NCBI RefSeq assembly: GCF_009707365.1
Contig: NZ_CP046122.1
Span: 1,240,001 to 1,304,000, forward strand
DNA length: 64,000 bases
Source of the DNA: Microlunatus sp. Gsoil 973
GTDB lineage: Bacteria; Actinomycetota; Actinomycetes; Propionibacteriales; Propionibacteriaceae
Direction: 5' to 3'
Shown here piece by piece: positions 33,567 through 57,131 of the stretch. Position 1 is the stretch's first letter. Every line of letters begins with the position of its first letter. Under the pieces are notes generated by a model, which ran no database searches, was not told where the DNA came from, and saw only the letters and a program-made list of their open reading frames with translations. A program made the position numbers and the translations under genes.

Positions 33567-36500
33567 ATGCCTGGTCTCTGCATACCGTCGTTCGAAATCG
33601 TCTGTGTCTCGCCCGTGATGGCTCGGGTCACGCCGGAGATACCGATCGCGGCTCGTCGTGCCGGGGCAACGGGAATCCTGGATCTGACCCATCCGGGGAT
33701 CGGCGAGCTGCGCCGGGACCAGATGTCGGCTGTTCGCAGACTGCAGCAGCAACCCTCGGGAGGCTGGGGGATCCGGACCAACGAGCCGTACCGAGCCTCC
33801 TCGGTGCTCGCTCTCCTCGCCGGCTCGGAGATTCCCGAGCAGTCGGTGCCGACCCTGGTGGTGTCGCCGGCGGATGATCTTGTCGACGATCTGCCACGCG
33901 ATCATTCGGGTGATCATCCGGTAGGGGACGGCTGGCCTGCGGTGATCGATGCCTGGCGGGCTGCGGGCGGCCGGATCCTGGTCGAGGTGACCGGCCTCGA
34001 CGATCTGCGCCGGGCCGAGCTGCTGGAAGCCGACGCTCTGGTGGCGGTCGGCGCCGAGGCCGGCGGGTGGACCGGCGACGAGAACAGCTTCGTACTGCTG
34101 CAGCATCTGGCCAGGCTGACTCCGCTTCCGGTGATCGCGCGGGGCGGGATCGGACTGCATTCGGCGGCAGCCGCCTATGTGCTGGGAGCCGCCGGCGTGG
34201 TGCTCGACGCCCAGCTGCTGCTTACCCGGGAGGCTCCCACTCCTGCCGCGCTGCGTCGACGGTTCGAGCAATCCGACGGCAGCGAGACGATCAACCTTCA
34301 CCAGGGACGGCGTCACATCCGGCTGTTTCCGCCGGCAGGACCACCCGGCCAACAGTTCGTTGATGCAGCGTTGCTTTCCGAAGCCGGCCCAGACGTCGGC
34401 CTCGACGTCGGCCTCGACGTCGGGTCGCCGGTGATGGCCGGGCAGGACATCGGCCTGGCCGCCGGACTCGCCGGCCGTTTCCCGACGGTCGGCCGCCTGG
34501 TGCAGGGAATCAGAGATGCCGTCGGCGATCAGGTCGCGACTGCCGCGCGAGCCGGCACGCTGGTCGAGCAGACCGCGCTGGCCCGGCTGCACGGAACGCG
34601 TTATCCGATCGTCCAGGGGCCGATGACCCGGGTCAGCGACACGCCGGAGTTCGCCCGCGCCGTCGCCGACGCGGGCGCACTGCCGTACCTGGCGTTGGCA
34701 CTGTCACCCGCCCCTGTCGTGGATGAACTCCTGGCCCGAACAGCGGCCGAACTCGGCGACCGGCCCTGGGGTGTCGGCATACTCGGCTTCGTGCCGGACC
34801 GGCTGCGCGCCGCACAACTGGAGGTGATCATCCGGCACCGGCCGCCGTACGCTCTGATCGCCGGTGGGCACCCGGACCAGGCCAGACAGCTGGAGTCGGC
34901 CGGCATCCCGACCTATCTGCACGTCCCGTCGCCCGGACTGCTGCGGTTGTTTCTCGCTGCCGGCGCCCGCCGTTTCGTCTTCGAGGGCAGCGAATGCGGC
35001 GGCCACGTCGGGCCGCGAAGCAGCTTCGTGCTGTGGGACACCATGATCAGCGAACTGCTGCAGGCCGGCTCGGAGCTCGATCTGTCCGACGTTCGTGTGC
35101 TGTTCGCCGGCGGGATCACCGACGGCATCTCGGCTGCGGCGGTCGCAGCGTTGGCGGCGCCGCTGGTCGAGGCCGGAGCGGCGATCGGGGTGCTGATGGG
35201 TACGGCGTACCTGGCGACGACCGAGATCGTCGCAACCGGGGCGGTGACCCACGACTTCCAGCACGAGGCTCTCGACTGCCTCGGCACCGCGCTGCTGGAA
35301 TCCGGACGCGGCTATCTGACCCGGTGCGCCGTCACACCGATCGTCGACGCCTTCCACGCCGAAGCCGAACGGCTGCGGGCGGACGATCGAGGACCGGGCG
35401 AGGTGCTCGATGCGCTCGAGCAGTTCAACCTCGGCCGGCTGCGCATCGCAAGCAAGGGACTCAAGCACGGTGCCGACGGCCCGGAACCGGTGCCACCCGC
35501 TGTGCAACGCGCGGAGGGCCTGTACATGATGGGCCAGGCAGCGGCACTGCGCGACGCGACGACGACCTGTGCCCAACTGCACCAGGACGTGTCGGCGGGC
35601 GCCGAGGCGAGCCTGCGGGCGGCGCGCCGGCGCCTCGACCGCGACCAGCACCAAGATCAGGAAACGGGTCCACAAGATCAGCGGGAACGGCACGATCAAC
35701 AGGCGGCCCGGCACGGCGCCGACGGATACGCGATCATCGGCATGTCCTGTGTGCTGCCGGGGGCACCGGACCTCGACCACTACTGGGCGAACATCCTCGC
35801 CGGCGTCGACGCGGTCACCGAGGTCCCGCGGGACCGCTGGGATCCGGACCGGTACTTCGACGCCGACCCGACCGCACCGGACCACACCTACAGCAGATGG
35901 GGCGGGTTCCTCTCCGATGTGATCTTCGACCCGCTGGATTTCGGCATGCCGCCGAACTCCCTGCCGTACATCGAAAGCATGCAACTGCTGGCCCTGCACG
36001 CGGTCCGAGAGGCCGTGGCCGATGCCGGTTACGCCGGAGGCGGACTACCGCGGGAGACGACGTCGGTGATCTTCGGTGCCGGCGGCGGGGTCTCCGAGCT
36101 CGGCCAGCGGTACGCGGTCCGGTCGGCGTTGCCTGGACTGCTCGGCGGCGTGCCCGACGAACTGGCGAGCAGGCTGCCCGAGTGGACCGAGGACAGTTTT
36201 CCCGGTGTCCTGGTCAACGTCACCGCCGGACGGATCGCCAACCGGTTCGACTTCGGCGGGATCAATTTGACGGTCGACGCTGCCTGTGCATCATCCCTTG
36301 CCGCATTGGAGATCGGCTGCCGCGAACTGGATGTCGGGACCAGCGACGTCGTCGTTGTCGGCGGCGTGGACACCATGCAGAACTCCTTCGGCTACCTGGC
36401 CTTCGCCAAGACCCACGCGCTGAGTCCGAGTGGACGCTGCCGGCCGTTCGACAAGAACGCCGACGGCATCGCGATCAGCGAGGGCGTCGCGGTGGTGATC

Positions 36501-39500
36501 ATGAAACGGTTGGCCGATGCGGAGCGGGACGGTGACCGGATCTATGCCGTGCTGCGTGGAATGGGCGGATCCAGCGACGGTCGGGCACTCGGCCTGACCG
36601 CGCCGCGGCCCGAGGGACAGGCCAGAGCCTTACGCCGCGCGTACGCCGCAGCCGGATTCTCGCCGGGATCGGTCGGCCTGGTCGAGGCTCACGGAACAGG
36701 GACTGTCGCCGGCGATCGCGCCGAGGTGCAGACTTTGCGATCGGTGTTCGAGGCGGCCGGTGCCCCGCAGCGCAGGTGTGCGATCGGTTCGGTGAAGTCG
36801 ATGATCGGGCACACCAAGTGCGCTGCCGGACTTGCCGGGCTGATCAAGATCAGCAAGGCGCTGCATCATCGGACCCTGCCACCGACGATCGGCGTCGAGG
36901 AACCCAATCCGGACGCCGGCTTCCCGAGCAGCCCGTTCTACGTCAACACCAGGGCGCGGCCCTGGTACCGCTCGACGACGCCCCGCCGGGCCGCGGTCAG
37001 CGCGTTCGGATTCGGGGGCACCAACTTCCATGCGGTGCTGCAGGAGTACGACCCGGACCCGGTCCGTGACGCCGGGGTGTTGCCGGCCGAGGTCTTCCTC
37101 TGGTCCGGCGACGCCGCAGAGGTGTCCGCGGCAGTTGATCATCTTCTGCACCAGCTGGAACGGCGAGAGAACCACCCGTCGGCCGTGCCGCGGCTGTCGA
37201 CATTGGCGGCTGCCACCCGCGCTCAGGCCCGCGACCGTGCCGCGGCCGGGCGTGGCGGCCGGCTGGCCGTGATCGTCGCCGATCTCGACGAACTGACGAC
37301 CCGTCTGCGGCAGGTCAGACCGATGATCGCCACCGGCCCGGTGAACCTGCCCGGCGCATGGTGGTGCCCGGCTCTCGATGCCGGACCGATCGCGTTCCTC
37401 TACCCGGGGCAGGGGTCCCAGCGGGCCGGAATGTTTGGTGAACTCGCGATCCACGCGGAACCTGTCCGGGCCGCACTGGAGCGGGCATCAGACATACTTG
37501 ACGGGATCCTGCCGAAACGGCTCGTCGAGGTCGTCCAGCCGGTCGACACGTTCACCGAGCAGGAGCGTCGGACGGCCGAGGCCGAGCTGCGGGCGACCCG
37601 TTTCGCGCAGCCGGCACTGGGCGCCGCGGCGGTCGGCCTCACCCGGCTGCTTGCCGACCACGGGATACGGCCGAGGGCCGCGGCCGGCCACAGCTATGGC
37701 GAATACCCCGCGCTGTGGGCTGCCGGAGTGTTCGACGAGGACTCGCTGTATCGGATCTCGGAGCTGCGCGGCCGCTGCATAGCCGAGCTCGGCGGCGGTG
37801 GTTCGATGCTCGCCGTCCCGGCCGCGGCGGAGCAGGTCCGTGAGCTGCTGGATGCCGGTCCGGATCGGCTCGACGAGGTGTGGTTGAGCAATCGAAACTC
37901 GCCGCGCCAGACGGTGCTGTCTGGCACGGTCGCGGGGCTGGAGGAGGCCGAGCGGAGATTGGCCGGCGCCGGCATCGACTGCCGGAAGCTGAACGTTGCC
38001 GCCGCCTTCCACTCGCCGCTGGTTGCGCCGGCGGCCGAGGCTTTCAGCGCGGCCCTGGCCGAGGTTAATCTGGCAGACGTAGGCGTCGCCGACACACTTG
38101 CGCCGGGCGGCACCGCGCCCGACGGGTCGATGATCACGGTGTACGCCAACGCCACCGCGAGCAGCTATGCCGGCACCGACGTCCGGGCGATGTTGTCCGA
38201 ACACCTGCTGCGCCCGGTGCGGTTCGCCGAGGAGATCGAGGCGATGTACGCGGACGGCAGCCGCGTCTTCGTCGAGGTGGGTCCGGGTTCGGTGTTGACC
38301 GGGCTGGTCGACCAGATCCTCGGCGACCGGGAACACCTGGCGGTCGCCGTCGACGGAGGCGTACGGGGATTCCTCGGCGCCCTCGGCCGGCTGTGGTGCC
38401 ACGGGGTGCCGGTGCACTGGCAGTCATTCGACCGGGACACGGAACCGCCGGGCAGCGTCGACGACGTGCTTGCCGCGGTGCCCCGGCCGTCCCAGACCAG
38501 TTGGCTGGTCAACGGCGCCGGTGCCCGGCCGCTGCACACGTCGGCCTCGCCGGTCGAACCGGTCCCTTACGTGGCGGAGCAGCACTTGGCTACGCCCGAA
38601 CCGACCGTGGACCGAGCATCATCGTCAGCTCGGATATCGCAGCCGCCGAACCTGGGATCGCAGCTGGTGAGCAGCCTCCCGGCTGTCGACCGGAGCGCCG
38701 ACCTCGACCGGCGCGAACTGCTCACGGTCGGACCGGACGGCGACGGGGCGTCGCAGGTGGTACAGGACTTCCAGCGGGTGATGGACAGGTTCCTGACAAC
38801 CTCCCGCGATGTCATGATGCAATACCTTTCCCGACCCTCGACCGTGTCGGACGAAGATCACGCCGCGGTGATGAACCATGAACATGATGTCGACCACCGG
38901 TCCGACGTCGGCGTCCCGGACGCGGTGGATGATCACGCCGTCGACCCGGGACCGATCCTGCCTCGACTGCGACGACTGCTGGCCGAACGAACCGGGTATC
39001 CCGAGGAACTGCTCAATGACGACCTGGACCTGGAAGGCGATCTGGGCATCGATTCGATCAAGCGCACAGAGGTCGTCGGCGCACTGCTGCGTGATCTCGG
39101 TGGATCGGATGCCACCACCGCCGGTTCGGTGCGCAGCGTTCGGACCCTCTCCGAGCTCGCCGAGGCGTTGGAGAGGGTGACACTGCATCAGTCGGCAGGA
39201 CAGCAGCCGGATCCGCAGCAGCCAGACCCGCAGCAGCCAGACCCGCAGCAGCCAGAACCACAGCAGCCGGATCCGCAGCAGCCGGAACCACAGCAGCTGC
39301 CGGCAGTGCAGACAGCCGCACTGCAGACGAGCGGTGACCGAGCCCCCGCTGCGGACCTGCCCCGGCTGGTGGCGGAGGCGACGCAACTGCGGCCGGCCGT
39401 CGCCGAGCTGCGGCCCGCCGGATCGGTGCTGATCATCGACCGTGGCAGCACCCTGGCCGCAGCCGCGGTGGCGCGCGGCTTCGCCGACCGGGACACTGCG

Positions 39501-40922
39501 ACCCAGATCATCAGCGTCACCGACCCCGCCATCCTGCGGACCGCGTGCGCGTCGGCCCGGGATCGGCTCGGCGGGCCACCGGCCGGACTACTCTTCCTCG
39601 CCGATCTGGACGCCGAGGCTGATGTCGAGGACGATGCCGAGACGGCAGTCGTGCAGTCTCTGGCCGCGGCGGCCGGGAGTCTTGCGCCGTCGATGGCAGA
39701 CCTCGCCTTCGTGCTCGCCGCCGTGCCCGACGGGACACCGGTGGCTGCCGCCGTGGCCGGATTCCTGGTCACGCTGTCCGCGGAATGCCCGGGGGTCCGG
39801 GTCTGTACCGTCCATCTCGGGCCGACCATCGGCACCGAACAGCTCTCCGACCTGCTGTATGCCGAATGCGGTGACCCGGCGACCGCTGCCGAGATCCGCT
39901 ACCCGGATCGGGCCGGCGGTCCCGCCACCAACGGACGAACCGGCGATCACCGACCGCGCCGGACAACAACGCAGTTCCGGCAGGTGCCGCAGGCGAGGAA
40001 CGGCCATTCGCTGATCCGGGATTCTGTCGTCCTGCTCACCGGCGGAGCCCGGGGCATCACCGCCCGACTCGCCGAGGGTCTCGGACGTCGCGGTACGGCG
40101 CAGCTGGTGCTCGCCGGACGGACCGCACTGGCCTCGGATCCGGTCGTTGAGCAGGTCGCCGCCGACCTCGGCACGGTTACCGGCGACACGCTGCGGGCCG
40201 GACTCGCCCGTCGGCTGGCGACAACGGGAGAGCTGCCCACCGCCGCTCAGCTGGAACGCAGAGCGGTCCGGTGGGAGCGGCGACGTGAGGTGTTGGACAA
40301 CCTTGATCGACTCACAGCTGCCGGCATCCCGGCGGAGTACGTGGAACTCGACGTCACCGACGGGCAGGCGGTTGCTGCCGTGATCGACGGAATCTGTCAG
40401 CGACACGGTCGGCTGGACATCGTTGTACACGGCGCCGGAGTGCTGGCCGATCACCTGATCGCCGAACTGACTCCGGAGCAGATCGATCGCGTTCTGCGGA
40501 CCAAGATCACCGGCGCCCGGAATCTGGCCGCGGCGATCCGGAAGGACTCCCTGCGCCGGCTGCTGATGATCACCTCGGTCGCGGGCTGGTTCGGCAATCC
40601 CGGCCAGGCAGCCTACGCGGCCGCCAACCGCGTGCTGGACGGGCTGGCCGTCCAGTGGGATGCGGCCTGGCCGTGCCGGGTGACATCGATCAGCTTCGGC
40701 CCCTGGGACGGCTCGGGAATGGCCACCGAGGAGATCCGCCGGCAGTTCCAGCAGCGGGGCATCGAGGTGATCGATCCCGAGGCCGGTGTTGCGGCGTTCC
40801 TGGAGGAAGTTGATCAGACCACACCGAGCTCCCATGTGCTGATCGGTCGCGGGCCCTGGCTCGAGTCCGCTGATCACCCCACCGACCGGGAAGCGATGAC
40901 AGCAGCCGGGAGTCGATCATGA
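33567..40922 (+). CDS. Iterative lipid/polyketide synthase subunit 1: ER-ER-KS-AT-ACP-KR
   Basis: A 2451-residue multidomain synthase. Residues about 5-250 and 345-585 are two tandem nitronate-monooxygenase-type (PfaD/FabK-like) flavin enoyl reductases; the second keeps ECGGHVG with His480, the first has Trp168 at that place (AEAGGWTG). KS is about 719-1170 (Cys907, His1042, His1082), AT about 1273-1590 (Ser1376 in GHSYG), ACP about 1795-1875 (Ser1830 in LGIDSIKR, the form found in PUFA synthases), then a Gln-Pro linker (about 1878-1912) and KR about 2152-2440 (GGARGI, Tyr2350). AGGA precedes the ATG. The order KS-AT-ACP-KR is that of PfaA-type subunits, with the PfaD function fused in front. 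It overlaps subunit 2 by 4 nt. Confidence 0.92.
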   Translation: MPGLCIPSFEIVCVSPVMARVTPEIPIAARRAGATGILDLTHPGIGELRRDQMSAVRRLQQQPSGGWGIRTNEPYRASSVLALLAGSEIPEQSVPTLVVSPADDLVDDLPRDHSGDHPVGDGWPAVIDAWRAAGGRILVEVTGLDDLRRAELLEADALVAVGAEAGGWTGDENSFVLLQHLARLTPLPVIARGGIGLHSAAAAYVLGAAGVVLDAQLLLTREAPTPAALRRRFEQSDGSETINLHQGRRHIRLFPPAGPPGQQFVDAALLSEAGPDVGLDVGLDVGSPVMAGQDIGLAAGLAGRFPTVGRLVQGIRDAVGDQVATAARAGTLVEQTALARLHGTRYPIVQGPMTRVSDTPEFARAVADAGALPYLALALSPAPVVDELLARTAAELGDRPWGVGILGFVPDRLRAAQLEVIIRHRPPYALIAGGHPDQARQLESAGIPTYLHVPSPGLLRLFLAAGARRFVFEGSECGGHVGPRSSFVLWDTMISELLQAGSELDLSDVRVLFAGGITDGISAAAVAALAAPLVEAGAAIGVLMGTAYLATTEIVATGAVTHDFQHEALDCLGTALLESGRGYLTRCAVTPIVDAFHAEAERLRADDRGPGEVLDALEQFNLGRLRIASKGLKHGADGPEPVPPAVQRAEGLYMMGQAAALRDATTTCAQLHQDVSAGAEASLRAARRRLDRDQHQDQETGPQDQRERHDQQAARHGADGYAIIGMSCVLPGAPDLDHYWANILAGVDAVTEVPRDRWDPDRYFDADPTAPDHTYSRWGGFLSDVIFDPLDFGMPPNSLPYIESMQLLALHAVREAVADAGYAGGGLPRETTSVIFGAGGGVSELGQRYAVRSALPGLLGGVPDELASRLPEWTEDSFPGVLVNVTAGRIANRFDFGGINLTVDAACASSLAALEIGCRELDVGTSDVVVVGGVDTMQNSFGYLAFAKTHALSPSGRCRPFDKNADGIAISEGVAVVIMKRLADAERDGDRIYAVLRGMGGSSDGRALGLTAPRPEGQARALRRAYAAAGFSPGSVGLVEAHGTGTVAGDRAEVQTLRSVFEAAGAPQRRCAIGSVKSMIGHTKCAAGLAGLIKISKALHHRTLPPTIGVEEPNPDAGFPSSPFYVNTRARPWYRSTTPRRAAVSAFGFGGTNFHAVLQEYDPDPVRDAGVLPAEVFLWSGDAAEVSAAVDHLLHQLERRENHPSAVPRLSTLAAATRAQARDRAAAGRGGRLAVIVADLDELTTRLRQVRPMIATGPVNLPGAWWCPALDAGPIAFLYPGQGSQRAGMFGELAIHAEPVRAALERASDILDGILPKRLVEVVQPVDTFTEQERRTAEAELRATRFAQPALGAAAVGLTRLLADHGIRPRAAAGHSYGEYPALWAAGVFDEDSLYRISELRGRCIAELGGGGSMLAVPAAAEQVRELLDAGPDRLDEVWLSNRNSPRQTVLSGTVAGLEEAERRLAGAGIDCRKLNVAAAFHSPLVAPAAEAFSAALAEVNLADVGVADTLAPGGTAPDGSMITVYANATASSYAGTDVRAMLSEHLLRPVRFAEEIEAMYADGSRVFVEVGPGSVLTGLVDQILGDREHLAVAVDGGVRGFLGALGRLWCHGVPVHWQSFDRDTEPPGSVDDVLAAVPRPSQTSWLVNGAGARPLHTSASPVEPVPYVAEQHLATPEPTVDRASSSARISQPPNLGSQLVSSLPAVDRSADLDRRELLTVGPDGDGASQVVQDFQRVMDRFLTTSRDVMMQYLSRPSTVSDEDHAAVMNHEHDVDHRSDVGVPDAVDDHAVDPGPILPRLRRLLAERTGYPEELLNDDLDLEGDLGIDSIKRTEVVGALLRDLGGSDATTAGSVRSVRTLSELAEALERVTLHQSAGQQPDPQQPDPQQPDPQQPEPQQPDPQQPEPQQLPAVQTAALQTSGDRAPAADLPRLVAEATQLRPAVAELRPAGSVLIIDRGSTLAAAAVARGFADRDTATQIISVTDPAILRTACASARDRLGGPPAGLLFLADLDAEADVEDDAETAVVQSLAAAAGSLAPSMADLAFVLAAVPDGTPVAAAVAGFLVTLSAECPGVRVCTVHLGPTIGTEQLSDLLYAECGDPATAAEIRYPDRAGGPATNGRTGDHRPRRTTTQFRQVPQARNGHSLIRDSVVLLTGGARGITARLAEGLGRRGTAQLVLAGRTALASDPVVEQVAADLGTVTGDTLRAGLARRLATTGELPTAAQLERRAVRWERRREVLDNLDRLTAAGIPAEYVELDVTDGQAVAAVIDGICQRHGRLDIVVHGAGVLADHLIAELTPEQIDRVLRTKITGARNLAAAIRKDSLRRLLMITSVAGWFGNPGQAAYAAANRVLDGLAVQWDAAWPCRVTSISFGPWDGSGMATEEIRRQFQQRGIEVIDPEAGVAAFLEEVDQTTPSSHVLIGRGPWLESADHPTDREAMTAAGSRS

Positions 40923-46362: not shown

Positions 46363-46652
46363 TGCAGACCGAACCGAAACAGGCACGCGAGCTCGTCCTC
46401 GGACTGATCACCGAGATAACCCGGGATGTCGACACCCGGCCGGTGACCTGGGATCGCAGGCTCGGTGATCTCGGGCTCGAATCGATCAGCCTGGTGTACC
46501 TGATCGCCGAACTGCAGCAGCAGTTGTCGCTGGGTGATCGGCTGGTCCGGGAGCTCCGCATCCGTTCCCGGGTCGAGCTGCCGATGATCACGGTCGGCGA
46601 ACTCGCCGACCTGGCGGCATCGCTCAGCCAACCGACAAAGGCACGATCATGA
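46362..46652 (+). CDS. Stand-alone acyl carrier protein
   Basis: A 96-residue carrier protein with the phosphopantetheine Ser41 in LGDLGLESISLVYLIAEL. Helices 1 to 4 are covered. The GTG start shares its first base with the last base of the subunit 2 stop, and the stop overlaps the next ATG, so it is translationally coupled on both sides. It differs from the ACPs inside the synthase (LGIDSIKR), so it probably takes the finished chain or a starter for the tailoring enzymes. Confidence 0.9.
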   Translation: MQTEPKQARELVLGLITEITRDVDTRPVTWDRRLGDLGLESISLVYLIAELQQQLSLGDRLVRELRIRSRVELPMITVGELADLAASLSQPTKARS

Positions 46653-48166: not shown

Positions 48167-48179
48167 GGTTGGATGCACG

Positions 48180-49061: not shown

Positions 49062-51627
49062 CCTCAAGCCCACCGGAGCCCCGAGGTCACCGGGCGGGTT
49101 GACCAGGCCCGACTTCGTCCGGATCGCCGGCCAGGGATTCGGTGACCCCACCAATTCCTATGTGCACTGCCTCGCCGGCTATCGGGGCTATGTGTTTGCG
49201 GGTACCTCGCGGAACTCGATGGCGTTGCTCAAGCTGTTCCCGCCTCCCGAACCACCGGCCCTCGACCCGTGGCCCGTGTCGGTTCCGGGCGACGTCGCAG
49301 ACCTCGACATGCACGGTCAGATCTGGCGGTTGGACTCGCATCGGGACGGTCGTCCCGCCGGCAGGACGCTGGGCCGGCGTTGGCGGCTGGTGCACACCTC
49401 ACCGGACATTCTGGGCAAGGACGGTTCGCTGGTGCCACGGGATCTCGGGTACCGCGGAATGACCGTCTTCCGCGGTGCATCGGATTCCGCTCCTGCTCTG
49501 TACGTCGGTTCGATCTCCACCGTCCTGCGCGGCTGTGCTGCCCGCCTGCTGCGGAGCACCGACGGGGAGACCTTCGATCCGGTCGGCGAACCCGGACTGG
49601 GCAATCCGCACGTCTCGACCCTGCGAGCGATGACGGGATTCGATGATCAGCTGTGGGTGCCACCAGCCGGTCAAGGCATCACGTTGAACAGCAACTCGGC
49701 GTCGGTGATCATGCGGTCCGATGATCCCGCCGTCGGCCCGTGGCGAGAGGCCTGCGAGCCGGGATTCGGCGATGCCACCAACACCGGCGTCTTCGAACTC
49801 TGCGTCTTCGCCGGACACCTCTACGCGGGAACATTCAATGCCGAACACGGTTACCAGGTCTGGAAGACACCCGCGACCGGACCTGGTGAACCACGATGGA
49901 CGCGGGTCATCGCCGACGGTGCCGGACGTGGGCCGCACAACGAGATCGCGATGAGCATGTGCGTGTTCGGCGATGCGCTCTATGTCGGAAGCGGGATCCA
50001 GAACGGCGGCTACGATCGGGTCAGCCGGGTAGGGCCTGCGTCATCGGAGCTGATCAGAATCCATCCCGACGACCGCTGGGACCTGATCATCGGCCAGCCC
50101 AGGCAGACGCGGGACGGATGGAAAGACCCTCTGTCGGGGATCGGTCCGGGCTTCGGCAATCCCTTCGCCGGCTACTTCTGGCGAATGGTCAGCCACGACG
50201 GCTGGCTGTATCTGACCACCTTCGACTGGACGGTGTTCCTTCCGTGGGCCGGCAAGCCCTCCAGGGCCGCGCAGACCGTGATCGAGGCCGTTGGCGCGAA
50301 CGAGGCCGTCCGGCGGGCCGGCGGCTTCGAGCTCTGGCGCAGCCGCAACGGTATCGACTGGTTCCCGGTGACAACCACAGGTTTCGGCAATCCGTACAAC
50401 TACGGCGGACGGACTCTGCTCTCCACCCCGTACGGCCTACTGGTCGGAACCGCCAATCCTTTCGCACCCGAGTCTCCGGACTTGACCGCCCACGGCTGGC
50501 GCTACCGGCGTAATCCCGACGGCGGCAGCGAGGTCTGGCTCGGTACGCCGTGTTCGTCGACGCGGACGGTGCACAGCCGTCGCATCGCGCGGCACGCCGC
50601 GGGCGCAGACATGCTGATCACCGGAGCAACGGGTTTCCTCGGTTCGCGGCTCGCCGACGAGCTGACCCGTCGCGGGACCCGACTGCGGATCCTTGCCCAG
50701 CCGGGAACCGAGGATGCCGCTCGCCGGTCGAGTACCGACGTCGTCGTCGGTGCTCTCGACGACCGGGCGGCTGTGCAACGGGCAGTGCGCGGGAGCGAGA
50801 TCGTCCTGCACCTGGCCGGGGTGCTACCGGGAGCCGATCCCGGCGACCTGCACAAGATCAACATCGAGGGCACCGACCTGTTGTTGTCTGCCTGCCGCGA
50901 CGACCCGCCGCGGCGCTTCGTGCTGATGAGCTCGACAGCGGTCTATGCCGACACTCTCGACCGGTCCCGATGGCCGCTCACCGAGGCAGCTGCGCTCGGA
51001 CCGACCGGACCCGGGCCGGCAGTCGCCTACGGCTGGTCCAAGGTTGCTGCCGAGCGCCTCCTCCAGCGGCGGGCAGCAGAAGGCGGATTCGAATGGCTCG
51101 TGCTGCGGCCGGCGACCTGCTACGGGTCGGGCAGCAACAGTGCCGAGAAGTTGATCAAGGCCGCCCAGATCGGAGCCGTTCTGGATCGGAGCTCCCGAGT
51201 GCTGCAGTACCTGCACGTTGATGATCTTGCCTCGATGGCGGCGACGCTGATCTGGTCGGCCGCCGATCGGGACACGGTGCACCTCGCCGGGCCGGACGCC
51301 TTGTCCTGGGCCGCTGTCCAGACGCTGGTCCGCCGAGTCATGAAGCGCCACGGCATGGGTCGGTCCGCGACGGGTGAGGACCCCGTCGACCGTCCGCCGA
51401 TGCCGCTGGCCAGGTTCGAGTTTCCGTACGACCTGACGCACGCGTTCGAGCTGGGTGCGATGCCGCGGATCGGCCTGCGGGAAGGGCTCACCGAGGCCGC
51501 GGTGGAACTTCGCGGGGCGAAGGCCGGTCCGAGATCGTCAGCGGCGATCACCCGTCGTGGTCGCCGAACAGGTGTTGGAGACGCCACAACCCGTCGAGAG
51601 GTGGAACGGCCATGGATGTCGCGGTGA
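49054..51627 (+). CDS. Beta-propeller-like protein fused to an NAD-dependent epimerase
   Basis: An 857-residue fusion. Residues 1-510 contain at least five copies of a G(F/L)G(D/N)P-type motif at about 27, 181, 237, 366 and 444, each followed by a strand pair such as LYAGTFNAEHGYQVW; this looks like blades of a propeller. From about residue 520 an extended SDR begins (MLITGATGFLGSRLADEL), with STAVY and YGWSK as catalytic Ser and Tyr-Lys, as in sugar or sterol epimerases/dehydratases. No stop or ribosome site separates the parts. I know no family with this arrangement. The substrate is probably a sugar nucleotide or the lipid itself. Confidence 0.82.
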   Translation: MVDLKPTGAPRSPGGLTRPDFVRIAGQGFGDPTNSYVHCLAGYRGYVFAGTSRNSMALLKLFPPPEPPALDPWPVSVPGDVADLDMHGQIWRLDSHRDGRPAGRTLGRRWRLVHTSPDILGKDGSLVPRDLGYRGMTVFRGASDSAPALYVGSISTVLRGCAARLLRSTDGETFDPVGEPGLGNPHVSTLRAMTGFDDQLWVPPAGQGITLNSNSASVIMRSDDPAVGPWREACEPGFGDATNTGVFELCVFAGHLYAGTFNAEHGYQVWKTPATGPGEPRWTRVIADGAGRGPHNEIAMSMCVFGDALYVGSGIQNGGYDRVSRVGPASSELIRIHPDDRWDLIIGQPRQTRDGWKDPLSGIGPGFGNPFAGYFWRMVSHDGWLYLTTFDWTVFLPWAGKPSRAAQTVIEAVGANEAVRRAGGFELWRSRNGIDWFPVTTTGFGNPYNYGGRTLLSTPYGLLVGTANPFAPESPDLTAHGWRYRRNPDGGSEVWLGTPCSSTRTVHSRRIARHAAGADMLITGATGFLGSRLADELTRRGTRLRILAQPGTEDAARRSSTDVVVGALDDRAAVQRAVRGSEIVLHLAGVLPGADPGDLHKINIEGTDLLLSACRDDPPRRFVLMSSTAVYADTLDRSRWPLTEAAALGPTGPGPAVAYGWSKVAAERLLQRRAAEGGFEWLVLRPATCYGSGSNSAEKLIKAAQIGAVLDRSSRVLQYLHVDDLASMAATLIWSAADRDTVHLAGPDALSWAAVQTLVRRVMKRHGMGRSATGEDPVDRPPMPLARFEFPYDLTHAFELGAMPRIGLREGLTEAAVELRGAKAGPRSSAAITRRGRRTGVGDATTRREVERPWMSR

Positions 51628-52439
51628 TCGGTCAACCCAGTGGGCTGCTCGAAGAGGTCGAAGAACGGCTCGCCAAGGATGGACATCGGGTGGTGATCAG
51701 CGATGAGGGGGATACCGGTGACGGCCGTGGTCGCGGTGGGATGAGGTCCGGGGAACGAAAGGGGCGGACCGCCGATGTCGTGATCGACATCGCCGAACCG
51801 GGCGCCGGAGATCACGTGGACCGCGCCGAACAGGTCGTGACCCTGTTGGACCGCTTCCACCCCGCTCGATTCGTATTGATCAGCACCGTGCTGGTCTACG
51901 CCCCGGTTCCCGATCCGCGCCGGTGGCCGATCCTGGAAGGGTTTCCGCGCCGGGCCCATGGTGAGCCGGCAGGCCGGGCCTATGGCCAGGCCTGCATCGA
52001 TGCCGAGGATGCCCTGGTCGACGAGGCCGGCCGCCGCGGTGTCGAGTACGTGATCTTGCGGCCGACGGTGATCCTGGGGTCTTCGGCCGACGGGTTCGGC
52101 GAACGGGTGCTCACCGACCTGTCGGAGCGTCCCTGGATGGCCGCCGGTCGGTACCAGGGCGCCGGGACGATGCAATGGGTCGATGCGCGCGATGCGGCCG
52201 CCGCGGTGACGCTGGCCGCGGTGGAACCGGCCGCAGCCGACGAAGCGTTCACCATTGCCGGCCCGGCGGCGTTCACCTCCGGTGATCTGGCGCGGTTGGC
52301 GACCGGTCGGCTGGACGACCTGGGGGACGTGTCGGACCCCAAGTTCGACACCACGAAGGCCGAGACGATCCTCGGCTGGCGTCCCGCGTATCAACTGGTA
52401 GCGGCAGAACCCGGACCATCGGGGTGGTGGTCGCCGTGA
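51612..52439 (+). CDS. NAD(P)-binding epimerase-like protein
   Basis: A 275-residue protein resembling extended SDRs: VVIDIAEPGAGDHVDRA and RFVLISTVLVYAP match strands 4-5, AYGQACIDAEDAL stands where YxxxK is expected (Tyr present, Lys not), and VILRPTVILGSS is the usual downstream strand. The N-terminal glycine motif is degenerate (VIGQPSGLLEEV). It may therefore be a non-catalytic partner of the fusion protein upstream, which it overlaps by 16 nt. A short disordered insert lies at about 33-52. Confidence 0.78.
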   Translation: MDVAVIGQPSGLLEEVEERLAKDGHRVVISDEGDTGDGRGRGGMRSGERKGRTADVVIDIAEPGAGDHVDRAEQVVTLLDRFHPARFVLISTVLVYAPVPDPRRWPILEGFPRRAHGEPAGRAYGQACIDAEDALVDEAGRRGVEYVILRPTVILGSSADGFGERVLTDLSERPWMAAGRYQGAGTMQWVDARDAAAAVTLAAVEPAAADEAFTIAGPAAFTSGDLARLATGRLDDLGDVSDPKFDTTKAETILGWRPAYQLVAAEPGPSGWWSP

Positions 52440-53308
52440 TCCGACCCTTCCTGCAGTCCCAGGTCGCGCTGATCACCGGCGCCGGGCGCGGGATAGGCGC
52501 CGCGACCGCCGAGCTACTGGCCCGGGCCGGAGCACAGGTGGTGGCGGTGGCCCGGTCGAAGCACGAACTGGACCAGCTCGGCCGACGGATCAACCAGGAG
52601 TTGGCCGGCCGCCCGGCTGCGGTCCGGGGCGGGATCCTGGCGGATTCGGCCGATGTGGCTGATCGCCGTGACGTGCAGGAGGTCGTTTCGCGTACCCGGA
52701 ACCGGTACGGCGGGATCGACCTGTTGATCAACGTCGCCGGCATCGTCGACCCGCTCGGCAGGCCGCTGTGGGAAGTCACCGAATCGGAATGGGCCTCCTG
52801 CCTCGCCACCAACCTGGCTGGGCCGTTCCACACGATGGCGACCGTGATCCCGGCCATGCTGGACGACGGTGGCGGCCGGATCATCAGCGTCTCGTCCCGG
52901 GCAGCGATCATCCCGGTCACCAACGCCGCTCCGTACAGCGCCGCCAAGGCGGGTCTTGATCATCTCACCCGCACTGTGGCCGCCGAGCTGGACGGCACCG
53001 GGGTCACGGCGGTCACCGTCGATCCCGGGCCGACCGACACGCCGACCTTCGATCGGGTGATCGACAACCTGTTCCCCGACGCACCGGCCTTCGCCGTCGA
53101 TCGGCGTCGCCGCCCGGTCGAGGATGCAGCGGTTCTGCTTGCCTGGCTGTGCTCGCCGGCCACCGCCGGATTGACCGGAGTGCATATCACCTGGAACGAC
53201 CCGCGGGTCGCGCGCAGAGTCGCCGGGTTCGAACAGTGGTTGACCGTTTGGGGAGGCGGCGTACCGACCCGGCCGGCCGGTCGGATCCGCGGCGGGCGCT
53301 ATGGCTAG
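52436..53308 (+). CDS. SDR-family oxidoreductase
   Basis: A 290-residue classical SDR: ALITGAGRGIGAATAELLA binds the cofactor, NVAGIVDPLG is the NNAG-type motif, ISVSSRAAIIPVTNAAPYSAAKAG gives the catalytic Ser, Tyr and Lys in broken form. After the usual core it has a 40-residue extension ending RPAGRIRGGRYG. The GTG at 52436 overlaps the previous stop (GTGA). A keto-reduction or alcohol oxidation on the operon's product is likely. Confidence 0.9.
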   Translation: MIRPFLQSQVALITGAGRGIGAATAELLARAGAQVVAVARSKHELDQLGRRINQELAGRPAAVRGGILADSADVADRRDVQEVVSRTRNRYGGIDLLINVAGIVDPLGRPLWEVTESEWASCLATNLAGPFHTMATVIPAMLDDGGGRIISVSSRAAIIPVTNAAPYSAAKAGLDHLTRTVAAELDGTGVTAVTVDPGPTDTPTFDRVIDNLFPDAPAFAVDRRRRPVEDAAVLLAWLCSPATAGLTGVHITWNDPRVARRVAGFEQWLTVWGGGVPTRPAGRIRGGRYG

Positions 53309-54212
53309 CCCGGCTCCGGTCGGGCCCGTCTTCGTGCTCGCGCCACACAGGTCGTACACCTCTGTCGTCGTGATGGTTCTCGGGCAGCACCCGATGCTGT
53401 TCGGGCTGCCGGAGACGAACCTGTTCGTGACGCCGACGATCGGGCAATGGCTGCGGGTCTACCGGGGCGGACGGCATCCAGGCGGTCACGGGCTGCTTCG
53501 GGCACTGTCCGAGGTGCTGTACGGCGCACAGGGCCCGGAACCTGTCACATGGGCACGGCATTGGCTGTTCGGTCACCGTGACTGGCCCGGCGAAGCCGTC
53601 TTCGCCCTACTTGCTGCCCGGATCAGTCCGTTGGGCGTCGTCGAGAAGAGTCCTCAGGTCTGCTATCGACCGGGCCGCCTGCAGCGTCTTGCCGGGGCCT
53701 GGCCAGGGGCGCGATACCTGCACGTCACGCGTCATCCGTACAGCCAGGGCAGCTCCATGCTCTCTTCGCTGGCCGACATCGGAATTCCGCCGCGGCTGGT
53801 CGACCGCTGGCTGGGCGAAGGCGGCGATCCGCAGCGGAGTTGGCTCGCCGCTCAGAACAACATCCTCGCGTTCGAGCAGTCGGTACCGACCGACCACTGG
53901 CTGCGCATCCGCGGTGAGGATCTGGTGGCCGACCTGCCCGCAGCGGCGGCGGCGCTCTGCGACTGGCTCGGGCTTCCCGGGTCTGCCGAGGTCGTCGAGC
54001 GGATGCTGCACCCGGAGCGGTCGCCGTTCGCGGCACCGGGCCCGCCCGGCGCCCGACTGGGCCTCGATGCCGGCTTCCTTGCCCATCCCCAACTGTCGGC
54101 CGGCGCCGGCGAGGTCGCGCTCCCGTCGATGGACGACCCGCCGCCCTGGGCGGCCGACCGGGCGGTCGATCCCCAGGTCCGGCAGGTCGCCATCGAGCTC
54201 GGATACTCATGA
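53301..54212 (+). CDS. Sulfotransferase-family protein
   Basis: A 303-residue protein of the PAPS-dependent sulfotransferase fold. VFVLAPHRSYTSVVVMVLGQ occupies the place of the 5'-phosphosulfate loop (usually PRSGTT), ARYLHVTRHPYSQGSSML is the 3'-phosphate motif with Arg and Ser, and HWLRIRGEDLVADLPAAAAAL is the typical late helix. The first loop lacks the usual Gly-Thr pair (Ser-Tyr-Thr-Ser instead), so activity needs proof. It implies a sulfated product. It overlaps its neighbours by 8 and 4 nt. Confidence 0.83.
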   Translation: MASPAPVGPVFVLAPHRSYTSVVVMVLGQHPMLFGLPETNLFVTPTIGQWLRVYRGGRHPGGHGLLRALSEVLYGAQGPEPVTWARHWLFGHRDWPGEAVFALLAARISPLGVVEKSPQVCYRPGRLQRLAGAWPGARYLHVTRHPYSQGSSMLSSLADIGIPPRLVDRWLGEGGDPQRSWLAAQNNILAFEQSVPTDHWLRIRGEDLVADLPAAAAALCDWLGLPGSAEVVERMLHPERSPFAAPGPPGARLGLDAGFLAHPQLSAGAGEVALPSMDDPPPWAADRAVDPQVRQVAIELGYS

Positions 54213-55741
54213 TCAGCAACGCCGCGACCAAGAAGCGTACGATCGGCGCACCCCGTCAGCCGGAGCCCGACCTGCGGCCGGACCTGCCCGGATGCCCGAT
54301 GTCCCACGCCAACCCTCAGCTGACGTCGGCTCAGGATCTGGTCGCGCCCGAGCGCGTTGCCGAAGTCTCCCGGATCGACCCTGTAGGAGTGGTGTCCGCC
54401 CGGTCAGGTTTCCACTTGGGGGCGTTCACTGCGCCAGGACGTCTGCTCACCGTTCACCCGGATCCGCTGCATCCCGCGATCGCGGCCTACGATCCGACGA
54501 GTCTCCAACTGCTCTGGACATCACCGCGCTCGGATCTCCCGGCAGATCGGACCGGGCGCCGCCGGCTTGCCGCACCACTGCTGTTCCGCTCGGCGACGGA
54601 CGACGACCCGACGTCCAGATTCGGTGTGATCACCGGCAACCCGACCGATCTGATCGCCTACGACAATCGGGGTCGGGAACTCTGGCGGCGGCCCAATGTG
54701 CTTCCCGGTCCGACCGCTGGCCCCAACGGCAGACCGTCATTTGGTGGCAGGAGCCGGTCCGCGGGCGGACCGATCTGCCTGAACCAGACCGATTCCGGCC
54801 ACCTGGTCACCGTGACCGATGACGGCTGGTTGATCACGATTGCTCCGGCCACCGGCCGGCGGCTGATGACCTGTCCACTTCGGGATCCGACCTCTCCCGG
54901 CCGACCCGGCGCTGTCCGACTGGGCACAGGCAAGTCCGTAGCGGTGGTCGGTCAGGTGCTGTACGCGCTCGTCTCGCCCCCCGGTCCGCGGGTGCCGGTG
55001 TTCTTGGCACGGTGCGAGATCGCCCACGACGGCCGACGCCTGGTCGGCGAACCGGAATTGATCATGGTCGGCCGCGACCGGGCGGGCGGATCGCCCTGTG
55101 TGCTCGCCGGGAATCACGGCACGAACCTGATCATCACCAATGCCGAGATCGGCCGGCCGTCGGTGCCGATCATGATGGTCATCGAGGACGTACCCGGTAG
55201 GGGCCTGCGAACCCGTTGGTGGTCGGTTATCCCCGGCCGACCGGGCGACCTGCTGCATACGTCGCCGGCGATCGAGCCGGGCACCAACCGGCTGCTGGTC
55301 ACCACCCGCGATCAGTTGGTGATCTTTCCGCCCGTTGATCAACTGGAGGGACGGGTGATCGCCCCCGCACCGGTCCGCGCCGATGAACTGTTGCCCGGGG
55401 AACTCCGCGGTGTGCCGGTCGGCAGCCTGGGGCTCGGCAGCCCGCTCACGCTGGCACGGGGTCGCAGCACGGCCACAGTGGTGATCACCAATCTGCGACT
55501 GCAGTCCCGCGCGGGAACCTTCGGGTACCTGGTGGCGGCCGCCTTGCCCGACCTGCTCCGGGGCGGTCGGCGGCCAGGGCTTCGACCATTGTGGGCTGTG
55601 CCGCTGAGTGACCCACCGACACCCGGCCCCGGCACCTTCGGCCAGGCGGCAGTGTTCAGCGACTCCGCCGGCCGCAGCGGCGTTCTGGTCACCACCGCGC
55701 GAAACGGAGCCTTCTGCATCAAAGGACCGGACAGGAGATGA
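54209..55741 (+). CDS. PQQ-like beta-propeller repeat protein
   Basis: A 510-residue protein with repeats of the YDPTSLQLLW and YDNRGRELWRRP kind, typical of PQQ-like propeller blades, and SDSAGRSGVLVTTARNG at the end. No signal peptide, lipobox or membrane segment is seen, so it is predicted to be cytoplasmic, unlike most proteins of this fold. It may be a scaffold for the tailoring enzymes, like the propeller half of the protein at 49054; this is inference. It starts with an ATGA overlap and ends 4 nt before the next ATG. Confidence 0.75.
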   Translation: MISNAATKKRTIGAPRQPEPDLRPDLPGCPMSHANPQLTSAQDLVAPERVAEVSRIDPVGVVSARSGFHLGAFTAPGRLLTVHPDPLHPAIAAYDPTSLQLLWTSPRSDLPADRTGRRRLAAPLLFRSATDDDPTSRFGVITGNPTDLIAYDNRGRELWRRPNVLPGPTAGPNGRPSFGGRSRSAGGPICLNQTDSGHLVTVTDDGWLITIAPATGRRLMTCPLRDPTSPGRPGAVRLGTGKSVAVVGQVLYALVSPPGPRVPVFLARCEIAHDGRRLVGEPELIMVGRDRAGGSPCVLAGNHGTNLIITNAEIGRPSVPIMMVIEDVPGRGLRTRWWSVIPGRPGDLLHTSPAIEPGTNRLLVTTRDQLVIFPPVDQLEGRVIAPAPVRADELLPGELRGVPVGSLGLGSPLTLARGRSTATVVITNLRLQSRAGTFGYLVAAALPDLLRGGRRPGLRPLWAVPLSDPPTPGPGTFGQAAVFSDSAGRSGVLVTTARNGAFCIKGPDRR

Positions 55742-55745
55742 CTCG

Positions 55746-57131
55746 ATGAGCACACCACGCCGGGTTGCGGTGATCGGGCTGGACTGTGGCACGCCACGGC
55801 TGCTGTTCGACGAGCTCGCCGGGCAACTGCCGAATCTGGCGGCACTCCGCGCCGCCGGCAGTTGGGGCCCCCTGCGGAGCACCGTGCCGCCGATCACCGT
55901 GCCGGCCTGGTCGTGTCTCTACTCGGGCCGCACGCCGGGCGAGCTGGGCATCTACGGCTTCCGGAACCGTGCCGACCACAGCTACGCCGGCTTGACAACG
56001 GCCGGCTCGCAGGACGTCCGGGTGCCGCGGCTGTGGGACATGCTGGGCGACGACGGCAGGCGATCGGTGCTGATCGGCGTACCCGGCACCTATCCGCTGC
56101 CCAAGGTCAGGGGCACGGTGATCGGTGATTTCCTGACGCCCTCGTCGGCCGAGGCGTGGGCGTCTCCGGCGGAGATCGGCCGGCGCATCGAGCGCGAGCT
56201 GGGACCATACCTGTTCGACGTCGACGACTTCCGTACCGACGACAAGGAACGGATCGCGCAACGGCTCTTCGATCTCACCGAGCAGCGGTTCGCGGTTGCC
56301 CGGCAACTGGCGGTCGCGGGGGAGTGGGATCTGTTCGCCATGGTCGACATGGGCCCTGACCGCCTGCACCACGGCTTCTGGTCGACCTACGATCCCGGGC
56401 ATCCGCGGCATCAGGTTGGCGGCCGCTACGCCGGCCTGTTCGCCGACTACTACCGGGCGCTGGATGATCATCTTGGCCGCCTGGTCGAGCTGTTCGACGA
56501 CGATGTCGCGGTACTGGTGGTCAGTGATCATGGTGCGCAGCCGATGATCGGCGGTTTCTGTATCAACGAATGGCTGCTCCGCGAGGGCCTGCTGGCGCTG
56601 AACCATCGGCCGGACGGACGGGTGCGGATCGCCGAGGCCGACATCGACTGGGCCAACACGACCGCCTGGGCCGACGGCGGCTACTACGCACGGCTGTTCC
56701 TGAACGTCGCGGGTCGGGAACCCAACGGCGTTGTGCCGATGAGCCATTACGAGAGCGTACGGGACGACCTGATCGAACGCGTGGAGAAGGTTGTCGATCA
56801 CCGTGGCGCGCTGATGGGGAACCGGGCGTTCCGGCCGGAGGACGTCTACCCCGAGGTCAACGGGATCGCCCCGGATCTGATCATCTATCTCGGTGACCTG
56901 CGCTGGCGGTCGGTCGGCACGCTCGGACTGCCGGACGGCCTCTACACCTTTGACAACGACACCGGACCCGACGATGCCAACCATGCCGAACTCGGCGTCT
57001 ATCAGTTGACCGGCGACGGGCTGCCGACGGGGGAGTTGGCGGACGCGTCGATCTACGACGTCGCTCCGACGCTGCAACGAGTGCTCGGGCTGCCTGCCGT
57101 CGACGGGCAACGCGGCCGGGTCCTGGTCTGA
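55746..57131 (+). CDS. Alkaline-phosphatase-superfamily phosphodiesterase 2
   Basis: A 461-residue paralogue of the protein at 46649. VAVIGLDCGTPRLL gives the first metal ligand Asp13, Thr51 in VPPITVPAW is at the nucleophile position (Ser in the paralogue), FAMVDMGPDRLHHGFW holds Asp and His ligands, and LVVSDHGAQPM the Asp-His pair. GDLRWRSVGTLG and the DDANHAELGVY segment close the site. It is the last gene of the eleven-gene operon; the next gene is on the other strand. It probably hydrolyses a phosphoester formed or used in the pathway. Confidence 0.88.
   Translation: MSTPRRVAVIGLDCGTPRLLFDELAGQLPNLAALRAAGSWGPLRSTVPPITVPAWSCLYSGRTPGELGIYGFRNRADHSYAGLTTAGSQDVRVPRLWDMLGDDGRRSVLIGVPGTYPLPKVRGTVIGDFLTPSSAEAWASPAEIGRRIERELGPYLFDVDDFRTDDKERIAQRLFDLTEQRFAVARQLAVAGEWDLFAMVDMGPDRLHHGFWSTYDPGHPRHQVGGRYAGLFADYYRALDDHLGRLVELFDDDVAVLVVSDHGAQPMIGGFCINEWLLREGLLALNHRPDGRVRIAEADIDWANTTAWADGGYYARLFLNVAGREPNGVVPMSHYESVRDDLIERVEKVVDHRGALMGNRAFRPEDVYPEVNGIAPDLIIYLGDLRWRSVGTLGLPDGLYTFDNDTGPDDANHAELGVYQLTGDGLPTGELADASIYDVAPTLQRVLGLPAVDGQRGRVLV

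What the first reader, a model, noticed from the sequence alone, without database searches (positions are those of the whole stretch)
33567..57131. Eleven-gene operon for an unusual reduced and probably sulfated lipid/polyketide
Eleven genes in one direction overlap or are separated by at most 13 nt. The two synthase subunits have PUFA-type ACPs (LGIDSIKR), tandem PfaD-like reductases, KR and DH, so iterative, fully reducing chain building is possible. The tailoring set (free ACP, two phosphodiesterase paralogues, alpha/beta hydrolase, epimerase fusion, second epimerase, SDR, sulfotransferase, two propeller proteins) does not match a PUFA, enediyne or heterocyst glycolipid cluster that I know. 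This is the best candidate for an undescribed system in the window.
Basis: partly seen in the sequence, partly recalled or inferred. Interest (0 to 1): 0.93.

Follow-up and report, generated by a model that had tools for sequence, protein, structure and literature searches.

The report
Imported lipid-synthase operon with sulfotransferase
A bacterium, apparently an actinobacterium, carries an imported gene island that looks like a factory for an unusual, probably sulfated lipid; its core recurs in several bacterial phyla with no product known to us, and in this genome two of the island's genes are read out of frame.

Summary
The eleven-gene operon is real: S1 (ER-ER-KS-AT-ACP-KR), S2 (KS-AT-ACP-DH-PPTase), free ACP, two metal phosphodiesterases, alpha/beta-hydrolase, propeller-epimerase fusion, epimerase, SDR, sulfotransferase and a PQQ-type propeller. 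Two corrections. (1) As assembled, S2 is split by a frameshift inside its KS; the divergent acyl-CoA-carboxylase gene just upstream is split too. (2) The operon lies in a ~30.5-kb island: in two close congeners the flanking genes are contiguous. It is not unique. S1/S2 belong to the PfaA/hglE-like "secondary lipid" synthases (types M-T of Shulse & Allen by PPTase motif). S1, S2, phosphodiesterase, hydrolase and propeller share a contig in 17 of 80 relative loci, over eight phyla; nearly the whole set, with the sulfotransferase fused to the second propeller, is in Rhodovulum and Lamprocystis. A related sulfotransferase was found in 12 of 36 synthase-bearing genomes tested, each of which also has the propeller. 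Best reading: a PUFA-synthase-type iterative FAS/PKS makes a reduced acyl chain that is off-loaded, adjusted by reductases and sulfated. Product, chain length and headgroup are unknown; integrity in this strain is uncertain. New variant of a known kind.

The parts
27048..57526 (.). inserted island between prephenate dehydrogenase (25977-27047) and SDR/cmk (57527-59025)
   Evidence: empty site in two close congeners, L166 and L167; GC3 slightly lower in operon genes
27413..28174 (+). BTAD-domain (SARP-like) regulator, possible part
   Evidence: PF03704 65.6 bits; link to operon inferred from position only
30974..32023 (+). second BTAD-domain regulator, possible part
   Evidence: PF03704 50.7 bits; link inferred from position only
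31974..33402 (-). acyl-CoA carboxylase carboxyltransferase gene, divergent from S1, in two frames (frame break near 32.98 kb)
   Evidence: PF01039 profile 44-128 in one frame, 132-474 in the other; frame switch; same divergent arrangement in L021, 44% identity, 1 of 92 loci compared
33567..40922 (+). S1 synthase subunit: PfaD-like ER x2, KS, AT, ACP, KR
   Evidence: Pfam; motifs; best NCBIfam TIGR02813, below its cut-off
40919..41758 (+). S2 first frame: N-terminal part of KS, with active-site Cys
   Evidence: PF00109 2-199; DAACASS
41539..46362 (+). S2 second frame: rest of KS, AT, ACP, DH, PPTase
   Evidence: Pfam; coding signal begins ~41.62 kb
46293..46652 (+). free acyl carrier protein (start may be 46362)
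   Evidence: PF00550; free ACPs in relatives
46649..48166 (+). PDE1, alkaline-phosphatase-superfamily phosphodiesterase
   Evidence: PF01663; putative metal ligands invariant in A3
48180..49061 (+). alpha/beta-hydrolase (putative thioesterase/acyl transfer)
   Evidence: PF12697/PF00561; in 36 of 80 relative loci
49054..51627 (+). F: seven-repeat propeller domain (about 1-500) fused to epimerase-type reductase (about 518-765)
   Evidence: Epimerase; repeats; family A1
51612..52439 (+). G: epimerase-type reductase
   Evidence: PF01370; relatives in L020, L050, L067
52424..53308 (+). H: short-chain dehydrogenase
   Evidence: PF00106; 34% relative in the Lamprocystis cluster
53301..54212 (+). I: sulfotransferase
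   Evidence: PF13469 74 bits; family alignment A2
54209..55741 (+). J: PQQ-type propeller protein
   Evidence: weak PQQ_2; homologue fused to the sulfotransferase in Rhodovulum and Lamprocystis
55746..57131 (+). K: PDE2, second phosphodiesterase
   Evidence: PF01663 154.6 bits; 47-59% relatives within 7 kb of S1 in L014, L036, L056

Best explanation
The operon is a horizontally acquired member of the PfaA/hglE-like 'secondary lipid' synthase class, of a lineage that joins the synthase with a propeller protein and a sulfotransferase. Shown by sequence: S1 and S2 together hold every domain of an iterative reducing cycle (two KS with active-site Cys, two AT, one ACP each, KR, DH, two PfaD-like ER) and their own PPTase. 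Inferred: the carboxylase supplies malonyl-CoA; S1 and S2 extend a chain by C2 units; the free ACP and the alpha/beta-hydrolase carry and release it; the epimerase/SDR enzymes set keto or hydroxyl groups; the sulfotransferase, held by J's propeller (they are one protein in two relatives), adds sulfate from PAPS to a hydroxyl; PDE1 and PDE2 remove or transfer a phosphate-linked group. The product would be an anionic long-chain membrane or secreted lipid. In this strain, as assembled, S2 and the carboxylase gene are out of frame, so the pathway may be silent, or the assembly may err there.
For: Domain content and active-site motifs. Closest curated model is omega_3_PfaA TIGR02813, 933 bits against a cut-off of 1010. 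PPTase has P1a and P1b' but no P0, as in types M-T of PMC3098273. The neighbours recur beside S1: PDE1 in 21 of 80 loci, hydrolase in 36, F propeller in 15 within the fetched stretch and in 8 more on the same contig; 17 of 21 PDE1 loci have F on the contig, and all 17 have S1 KR and a separate S2 KS and DH-PPTase. Sulfotransferase in 10 of 15 genomes with F in the fetched stretch and 1 of 20 without (Fisher p 1.5e-4, kinship not corrected). Sulfotransferase-J fusion in two genomes. Empty site in two congeners.
Against: No product, expression or enzyme activity is known for any of these clusters in what I searched. S2 is split inside its KS. Single ACPs are unlike classical PUFA synthases. F is often present without the sulfotransferase: 16 of 24 sulfotransferase-negative genomes have F, so the sulfation step is at most one branch. 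Nine other genomes of its phylum with S1 showed the hydrolase but no PDE1 or sulfotransferase in the stretches held. The sulfated atom is not shown; the enzyme could serve an activating step or act on another molecule. The genome holds further PF13469 proteins.
Confidence: 0.57

Rival explanations
1. The island is decaying or cryptic in this strain: the synthase and carboxylase genes are pseudogenes and no product is made.
For: Two genes of the island change frame; the syntenic site is empty in 2 close congeners and 8 more have prephenate dehydrogenase beside cmk; F has no match at E<=1e-10 in the 393 other class genomes sampled.
Against: The other reading frames of the operon are long, intact and carry coding signal; assembly slips could explain both breaks, and reads could not be seen. 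Two breaks in about 30 kb against no equally clear one in about 33 kb of flank means little. A split S2 is also seen in L079 while its near twin L082 has it whole, so such breaks can be isolated or artefacts.
Confidence: 0.35
2. The sulfotransferase is an activating enzyme as in CurM and the cyanobacterial olefin synthase: it sulfates a beta-hydroxyl, and the alpha/beta-hydrolase then drives decarboxylation to a terminal alkene, so that the end product is unsulfated (mechanism recalled).
For: The only solved relatives of I at E<=1e-5 are CurM ST and an olefin-type polyketide-synthase ST; a hydrolase is in the operon.
Against: Nearest-solved means little where few relatives are solved. The His of the CurM/Ols segment before 'DPNF' (catalytic role recalled) has no counterpart in nine of ten cluster sulfotransferases; Rhodovulum's has a His there, but not at the same spacing. 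The hydrolase occurs in many clusters where no sulfotransferase was found, and the 60 solved relatives shown of 240 do not include a CurM thioesterase.
Confidence: 0.08
3. The operon makes a soluble polyketide (enediyne-like or antibiotic) rather than a lipid.
For: KS-AT-ACP-KR-DH-PPTase content is shared with iterative enediyne synthases (recalled).
Against: Two PfaD-like ERs and PUFA-type ACPs; the best curated match is PfaA; some relatives have HlyD-type or outer-membrane efflux proteins or ABC exporters nearby.
Confidence: 0.1

Closest known systems
Secondary lipid synthases of Shulse & Allen 2011 (types M-T)
   Same: KS/AT/ACP/KR/DH/ER/PPTase set; PPTase motifs P1a and P1b'; patchy spread over phyla
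   Different: 'sulfotransferase' and 'phosphodiesterase' do not occur in the paper's main text; here two ER domains stand before the KS in one protein and each subunit has one ACP. Which letter type it is was not tested (figures not held; no typed reference sequences at hand)
PUFA synthase PfaA-E
   Same: PfaA-like KS-AT-ACP-KR order, PfaD-like ER, LGIDSI ACP motif
   Different: single ACPs, both KS keep the Cys so no CLF was seen, PPTase without P0, extra tailoring genes; below the TIGR02813 cut-off
Heterocyst glycolipid (hgl) island
   Same: related PfaA-type synthase; epimerase-type enzymes
   Different: hgl island has CLF, thioester reductase, glycosyltransferase and ABC transporter (PMC11804610, passages); none of these in the window operon
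Streptomyces plasmid cluster NZ_CP108492.1 (type I PKS, KS protein, ACP, alpha/beta hydrolase, glycosyltransferase, methyltransferase)
   Same: S1-S2-ACP-hydrolase start
   Different: sugar and methyl tailoring instead of PDE, propeller and sulfotransferase
Rhodovulum adriaticum (L067) and Lamprocystis purpurea (L020) clusters
   Same: S1, S2, ACP, PDE1, hydrolase, full-length F fusion, a G-like epimerase match, sulfotransferase with J
   Different: sulfotransferase and J fused and on the other strand; HlyD-type exporter present; no close PDE2 seen
CurM / olefin-synthase sulfotransferases
   Same: closest solved sequences; shared PAPS-site segments
   Different: stand-alone here; His segment not conserved in nine of ten

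Membership tests
Secondary lipid synthase, types M-T (PMC3098273) | at least KS, ACP and KR | tested here: met
Secondary lipid synthase, types M-T (PMC3098273) | PPTase P1a x(G/D)xP and P1b' hShxH, no P0 | tested here: met
   AGAP, VSISH, no hRxhLS
Secondary lipid synthase, types M-T (PMC3098273) | multiple tandem ACPs (usual; the authors do not require it) | tested here: not met
   one ACP motif in each subunit
Secondary lipid synthase, types M-T (PMC3098273) | KS groups with typed references | not tested
   no typed reference sequence was in hand; own KS tree only
PUFA synthase (PfaA) | TIGR02813 over curated cut-off | tested here: not met
   932.8 bits against 1010.1
Heterocyst glycolipid island | thioester reductase, CLF, glycosyltransferase, ABC exporter | tested here: not met
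   no such match over cut-off in the operon; TIGR01746 thioester reductase only far below its cut-off on F and G
Enediyne synthase | KS-AT-ACP-KR-DH-PPTase in one protein (recalled) | tested here: not met
   domains on two proteins, with two ERs
CurM/Ols decarboxylating sulfotransferase | catalytic His as in CurM (recalled) and linked thioesterase | tested here: inconclusive
   His segment absent in nine of ten cluster enzymes; no structure made
PF13469 sulfotransferase | score over gathering cut-off; PAPS-site segments | tested here: met
   74 against 27 bits; RS, KSP, RHP and GE conserved in ten with single exceptions
Sulfated lipid pathway | sulfated product dependent on the synthase | not testable with these tools
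   needs LC-MS

The most novel reading that the evidence does not exclude
S1-S2-PDE-hydrolase-propeller, usually with a free ACP, is a pathway spread over at least eight phyla for an undescribed class of long-chain lipids whose synthesis needs an unnamed seven-repeat propeller family; one branch of it (seen in Rhodovulum, Actibacterium, Lamprocystis, Neptuniibacter, Scalindua, Brocadia, Tectomicrobia and this bacterium) makes sulfated members in which the sulfotransferase works on a propeller scaffold.
Probability: 0.33. Interest if true: 0.75.

Novelty: new variant of a known kind. Interest (0 to 1): 0.5.

Why it matters
It would turn an orphan but recurrent lipid-synthase class into a testable system with a named core, a propeller family tied to it (no Pfam family over cut-off and no PDB sequence match in the members searched) and a sulfation branch, and would help to say what lipid various Planctomycetota, Acidobacteriota and marine proteobacteria make. 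It also shows entry of the pathway into one lineage with an identifiable empty site.

Tried and rejected
Uniqueness of the gene set: rejected, the core recurs. Descent from other genomes of its phylum: not settled. 10 of 396 phylum genomes, own included, have the S1 N-terminus at E<=1e-40; stretches around the nine others show S1, DH-PPTase and hydrolase in 9 of 9 and a second KS in 7 of 9, but no PDE1 or sulfotransferase at E<=1e-4 and one weak F match. Against a clean split, two named actinobacteria do carry relatives: L021 (Solirubrobacteraceae) has PDE1 and F, and L056 (Micromonospora) has PDE1 and the closest PDE2, 59%. No donor can be named: the window KS is a long branch in no starred group. 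Plasmids: F had no match at E<=1e-20 in 72,556 records; S1 had 15 partial matches at E<=1e-100. Promoter and terminator scan of 45000-57700 only: nothing above shuffles. Literature: eight searches of an open-licence library gave no characterised cluster with this set; subscription journals are mostly missing. Papers seen: PMC3098273 (abstract, section 7, passages); PMC13291983 (abstract, passages); PMC11804610, PMC8396431, PMC12800573 (passages; abstract starts in listings); PMC12135136 (sulfated adipostatins) in the listing only. 'Actinobacterium, perhaps Propionibacteriales' is inferred: genomes of its class group tightly with a named Streptomyces plasmid in the KS tree, and genus and family sizes look right; no tool named it.

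That split was not consistent (L074 and L086 have F at only 30-36% and had been picked partly for their sulfotransferase), so it is withdrawn for the locus-based count, and confidence went from 0.60 to 0.57 and the novel case from 0.35 to 0.33. The repeat test used overlapping segments; one search repeats it without overlap.

Limits of the counts: the 80 loci are the best 80 of 248 confirmed relatives and many end at contig ends, so absences are soft; presence thresholds are in the script. Sulfotransferase was sought in 36 genomes: 15 with F in the fetched stretch (10 positive), 20 chosen by me from the rest (1 positive, L069), and L071, taken because its locus already held the gene (with it 2 of 21, p 8e-4). 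Six of these loci were known to hold the gene before the search. At whole-genome level all 12 positives have F and so have 16 of 24 negatives (p 0.03). Several genomes are close kin (three Neptuniibacter). Of 14 congener loci, 2 have PDH-SDR-cmk contiguous, 8 have PDH beside cmk, and 4 (L168, L171, L172, L175) show no PDH in the stretch held; L168 is the third close congener. In one search rows with stop codons or without a nearby NPD hit were dropped; 93 rows were used.
Full report
What is there. The window is G000:C1:1240001-1304000 of a 4.9-Mb single-contig genome. From 33567 to 57131 a run of + strand genes overlaps by a few nt or is spaced by at most 13 nt. S1 (2451 aa) reads as two nitronate-monooxygenase-type (PfaD-like) domains, KS, AT, ACP and KR; S2 as KS, AT, ACP, DH and PPTase; then a free ACP, a PF01663 phosphodiesterase, an alpha/beta-hydrolase, a protein with an epimerase-type C-terminal domain, a second epimerase, an SDR, a PF13469 sulfotransferase, a protein with no Pfam family over cut-off and a second PF01663 protein. 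Both KS keep the active-site Cys, HGTGT and the KSMIGH/KSMISH motif, both AT keep GHSxGE, and each subunit has one LGIDSI ACP. In an alignment of 12 phosphodiesterases the residues D10, D214, H218, D271, H272 and H429 of PDE1 are invariant (their roles as metal ligands are recalled).

The KS of S2 changes frame: PF00109 2-199 is in the frame 40919-41758 and 198-252 in the frame 41539-46362, and the coding signal switches at about 41.61 kb. An acyl-CoA carboxylase gene, divergent just upstream of S1, is also in two frames, PF01039 44-128 and 132-474, switching at about 32.98 kb. A frame scan of the window gives no equally clear break in the core genes on either side; weaker switches at 19641, 30019 and 51510 were seen and may be gene ends or poorly scored stretches. 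Intact S2 homologues exist as single ORFs of about 1,600 aa in many relatives; S2 is in two pieces in L079 although whole in the close relative L082, and its KS match is in two pieces in L047. Whether the breaks here are real cannot be told without reads.

An island. Upstream of 27048 lies prephenate dehydrogenase, downstream an SDR, cytidylate kinase, an acyltransferase and Der. In two congeners with 75% identical cmk, prephenate dehydrogenase, SDR and cmk are contiguous, and in 8 of the other 12 loci prephenate dehydrogenase lies beside cmk; 4 show no dehydrogenase in the stretch held, the third close congener among them. About 30.5 kb therefore sit in the gap. The F propeller has no match at E<=1e-10 in the 393 other class genomes sampled; in the order search the listed matches of other genomes fall almost all on the epimerase part, with one short propeller stretch (G231, 423-497), the list being cut. 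Besides the operon the island holds two BTAD-type regulators, an M4 peptidase and the carboxylase. A homologous carboxylase lies divergently beside S1 in a Solirubrobacteraceae genome (L021), 1 of 92 loci compared.

Relatives. A scan of the genome collection with S1 confirmed 248 stretches and kept the best 80, from Planctomycetota, Acidobacteriota, Chloroflexota, Pseudomonadota, Actinomycetota, Myxococcota, Melainabacteria and others (labels). PDE1 relatives are in 21 of 80, the hydrolase in 36, F's propeller in 15, PDE2 relatives over 40% identical in 3, the sulfotransferase in 5, G in 3 and J in 1. Free ACPs were called in 20 of 80, 17 of one sequence family and 3 of the window's. Many loci end before the region of interest. 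Further along the same contigs, F-like genes lie 0.6-6.2 kb beyond the hydrolase match in 8 more loci. Thus 17 of 21 PDE1 loci have F on the contig, and all 17 have an S1 KR and a separate S2 KS and DH-PPTase; the hydrolase is seen in all 17, in L011 only as a partial match, and a free ACP was called in 11. The 17 span Planctomycetota, Acidobacteriota, Myxococcota, Chloroflexota, Pseudomonadota, Actinomycetota, Thermodesulfobacteriota and Tectimicrobiota; those with a called ACP span the first seven except that Tectimicrobiota is missing. The nearest gene sets are in Rhodovulum adriaticum, Actibacterium atlanticum and Lamprocystis purpurea: ACP, PDE1 at 46-49%, F fusion at 45-46% over its length, a G-like epimerase match. 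In Rhodovulum and Lamprocystis the sulfotransferase and J are one protein.

The sulfotransferase. A homologue of I at E<=1e-20 is present in 10 of 15 genomes whose fetched stretch holds F and in 1 of 20 chosen others (Brocadia, which also has F, on another contig); L071, chosen for its sulfotransferase, has F too. Fisher p is 1.5e-4, or 8e-4 with L071, without correction for kinship. At genome level all 12 positives have F, but so have 16 of 24 negatives (p 0.03). So the sulfotransferase was not met without F, while F is often met without the sulfotransferase. The ten aligned sulfotransferases share the RS, KSP, RHP and GE segments with single exceptions. The only solved relatives at E<=1e-5 are CurM and an olefin-type sulfotransferase, but the His before 'DPNF' has no counterpart in nine of ten. 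I therefore prefer ordinary sulfation of a hydroxyl to alkene formation, with low certainty.

The propellers. F has seven copies of a repeat, 51-103 residues apart, around an 'LYxGT'-like core; without overlap the pairs score 30.4 on average against 20.3 (sd 4.2) for shuffled copies, 14 of 21 pairs lying more than 2 sd above (anchors chosen by eye). The window's F has no Pfam match at E<=0.1 in its propeller; relatives give weak Kelch or other propeller matches (best E 0.012-0.072, 5 members scanned). J is PQQ_2-like: its Rhodovulum homologue passes the cut-off, the Lamprocystis one and J do not. That both act inside the cell, as scaffolds, is inferred from their fusions to a reductase and to the sulfotransferase; signal peptides were not tested with a program.

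Mechanism. Shown by sequence: a full iterative reducing domain set with its own PPTase. Inferred: malonyl-CoA supply by the carboxylase; chain extension on S1/S2; hand-over to the free ACP; release by the hydrolase; redox adjustment by F, G and H; sulfation by I with J; phosphodiester removal or transfer by PDE1/PDE2. Some proteobacterial relatives have a HlyD-type protein and, in Neptuniibacter, an outer-membrane efflux protein nearby, which would fit an exported or outer-membrane lipid; none was seen in the window operon.

Comparison. By PPTase motifs the system falls in types M-T of Shulse & Allen (PMC3098273). It is not PfaA by the curated cut-off and lacks the CLF, thioester reductase and glycosyltransferase of the hgl island (PMC11804610 passages). 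A Streptomyces plasmid cluster has the same S1-S2-ACP-hydrolase start followed by a glycosyltransferase and a methyltransferase, and a Beijerinckia plasmid has an S1-like synthase with KS III-type genes, a glycosyltransferase and an ABC exporter: the synthase core is shared and the tailoring genes vary.

Verdict. A real operon, in an inserted island, of a known kind of synthase with an unusual and recurrent tailoring set; product unknown; the synthase is interrupted in this assembly.

Noticed in passing
window 31974-33402: Acyl-CoA carboxylase gene split over two frames, divergent from S1; similar divergent neighbour in L021.
   Followed up: partly
window 27048-57526: Whole island sits between prephenate dehydrogenase and an SDR that are contiguous in two congeners.
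   Followed up: yes
L024:13916-16249, L025:21582-23349 (F homologues): Propeller domain followed by what looks by eye like a SAM-methyltransferase sequence instead of an epimerase.
   Followed up: no
L149:535-3327, L067:1719-4646, L151:15826-18912: 930-1028 aa protein, HlyD-type C-terminus in the one scanned, recurs in sulfotransferase-bearing proteobacterial clusters.
   Followed up: partly
L189 (G987:C229:28309-35321): Three successive F-like matches beside the synthase in a Caldilineae genome.
   Followed up: no
L079:18311-23067, L047:18866-22974: S2 also appears in two pieces in these two records.
   Followed up: no
window 28851-29918: M4 (thermolysin-type) peptidase inside the island, apart from the operon.
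   Followed up: no
window 51500-51627: C-terminal tail of F has poor codon signal and the next frame is open; exact F/G boundary unsure.
   Followed up: no
L162 (Beijerinckia indica plasmid pBIND02): S1-like synthase followed by two KS III-type genes, PPTase, glycosyltransferase and ABC exporter.
   Followed up: no
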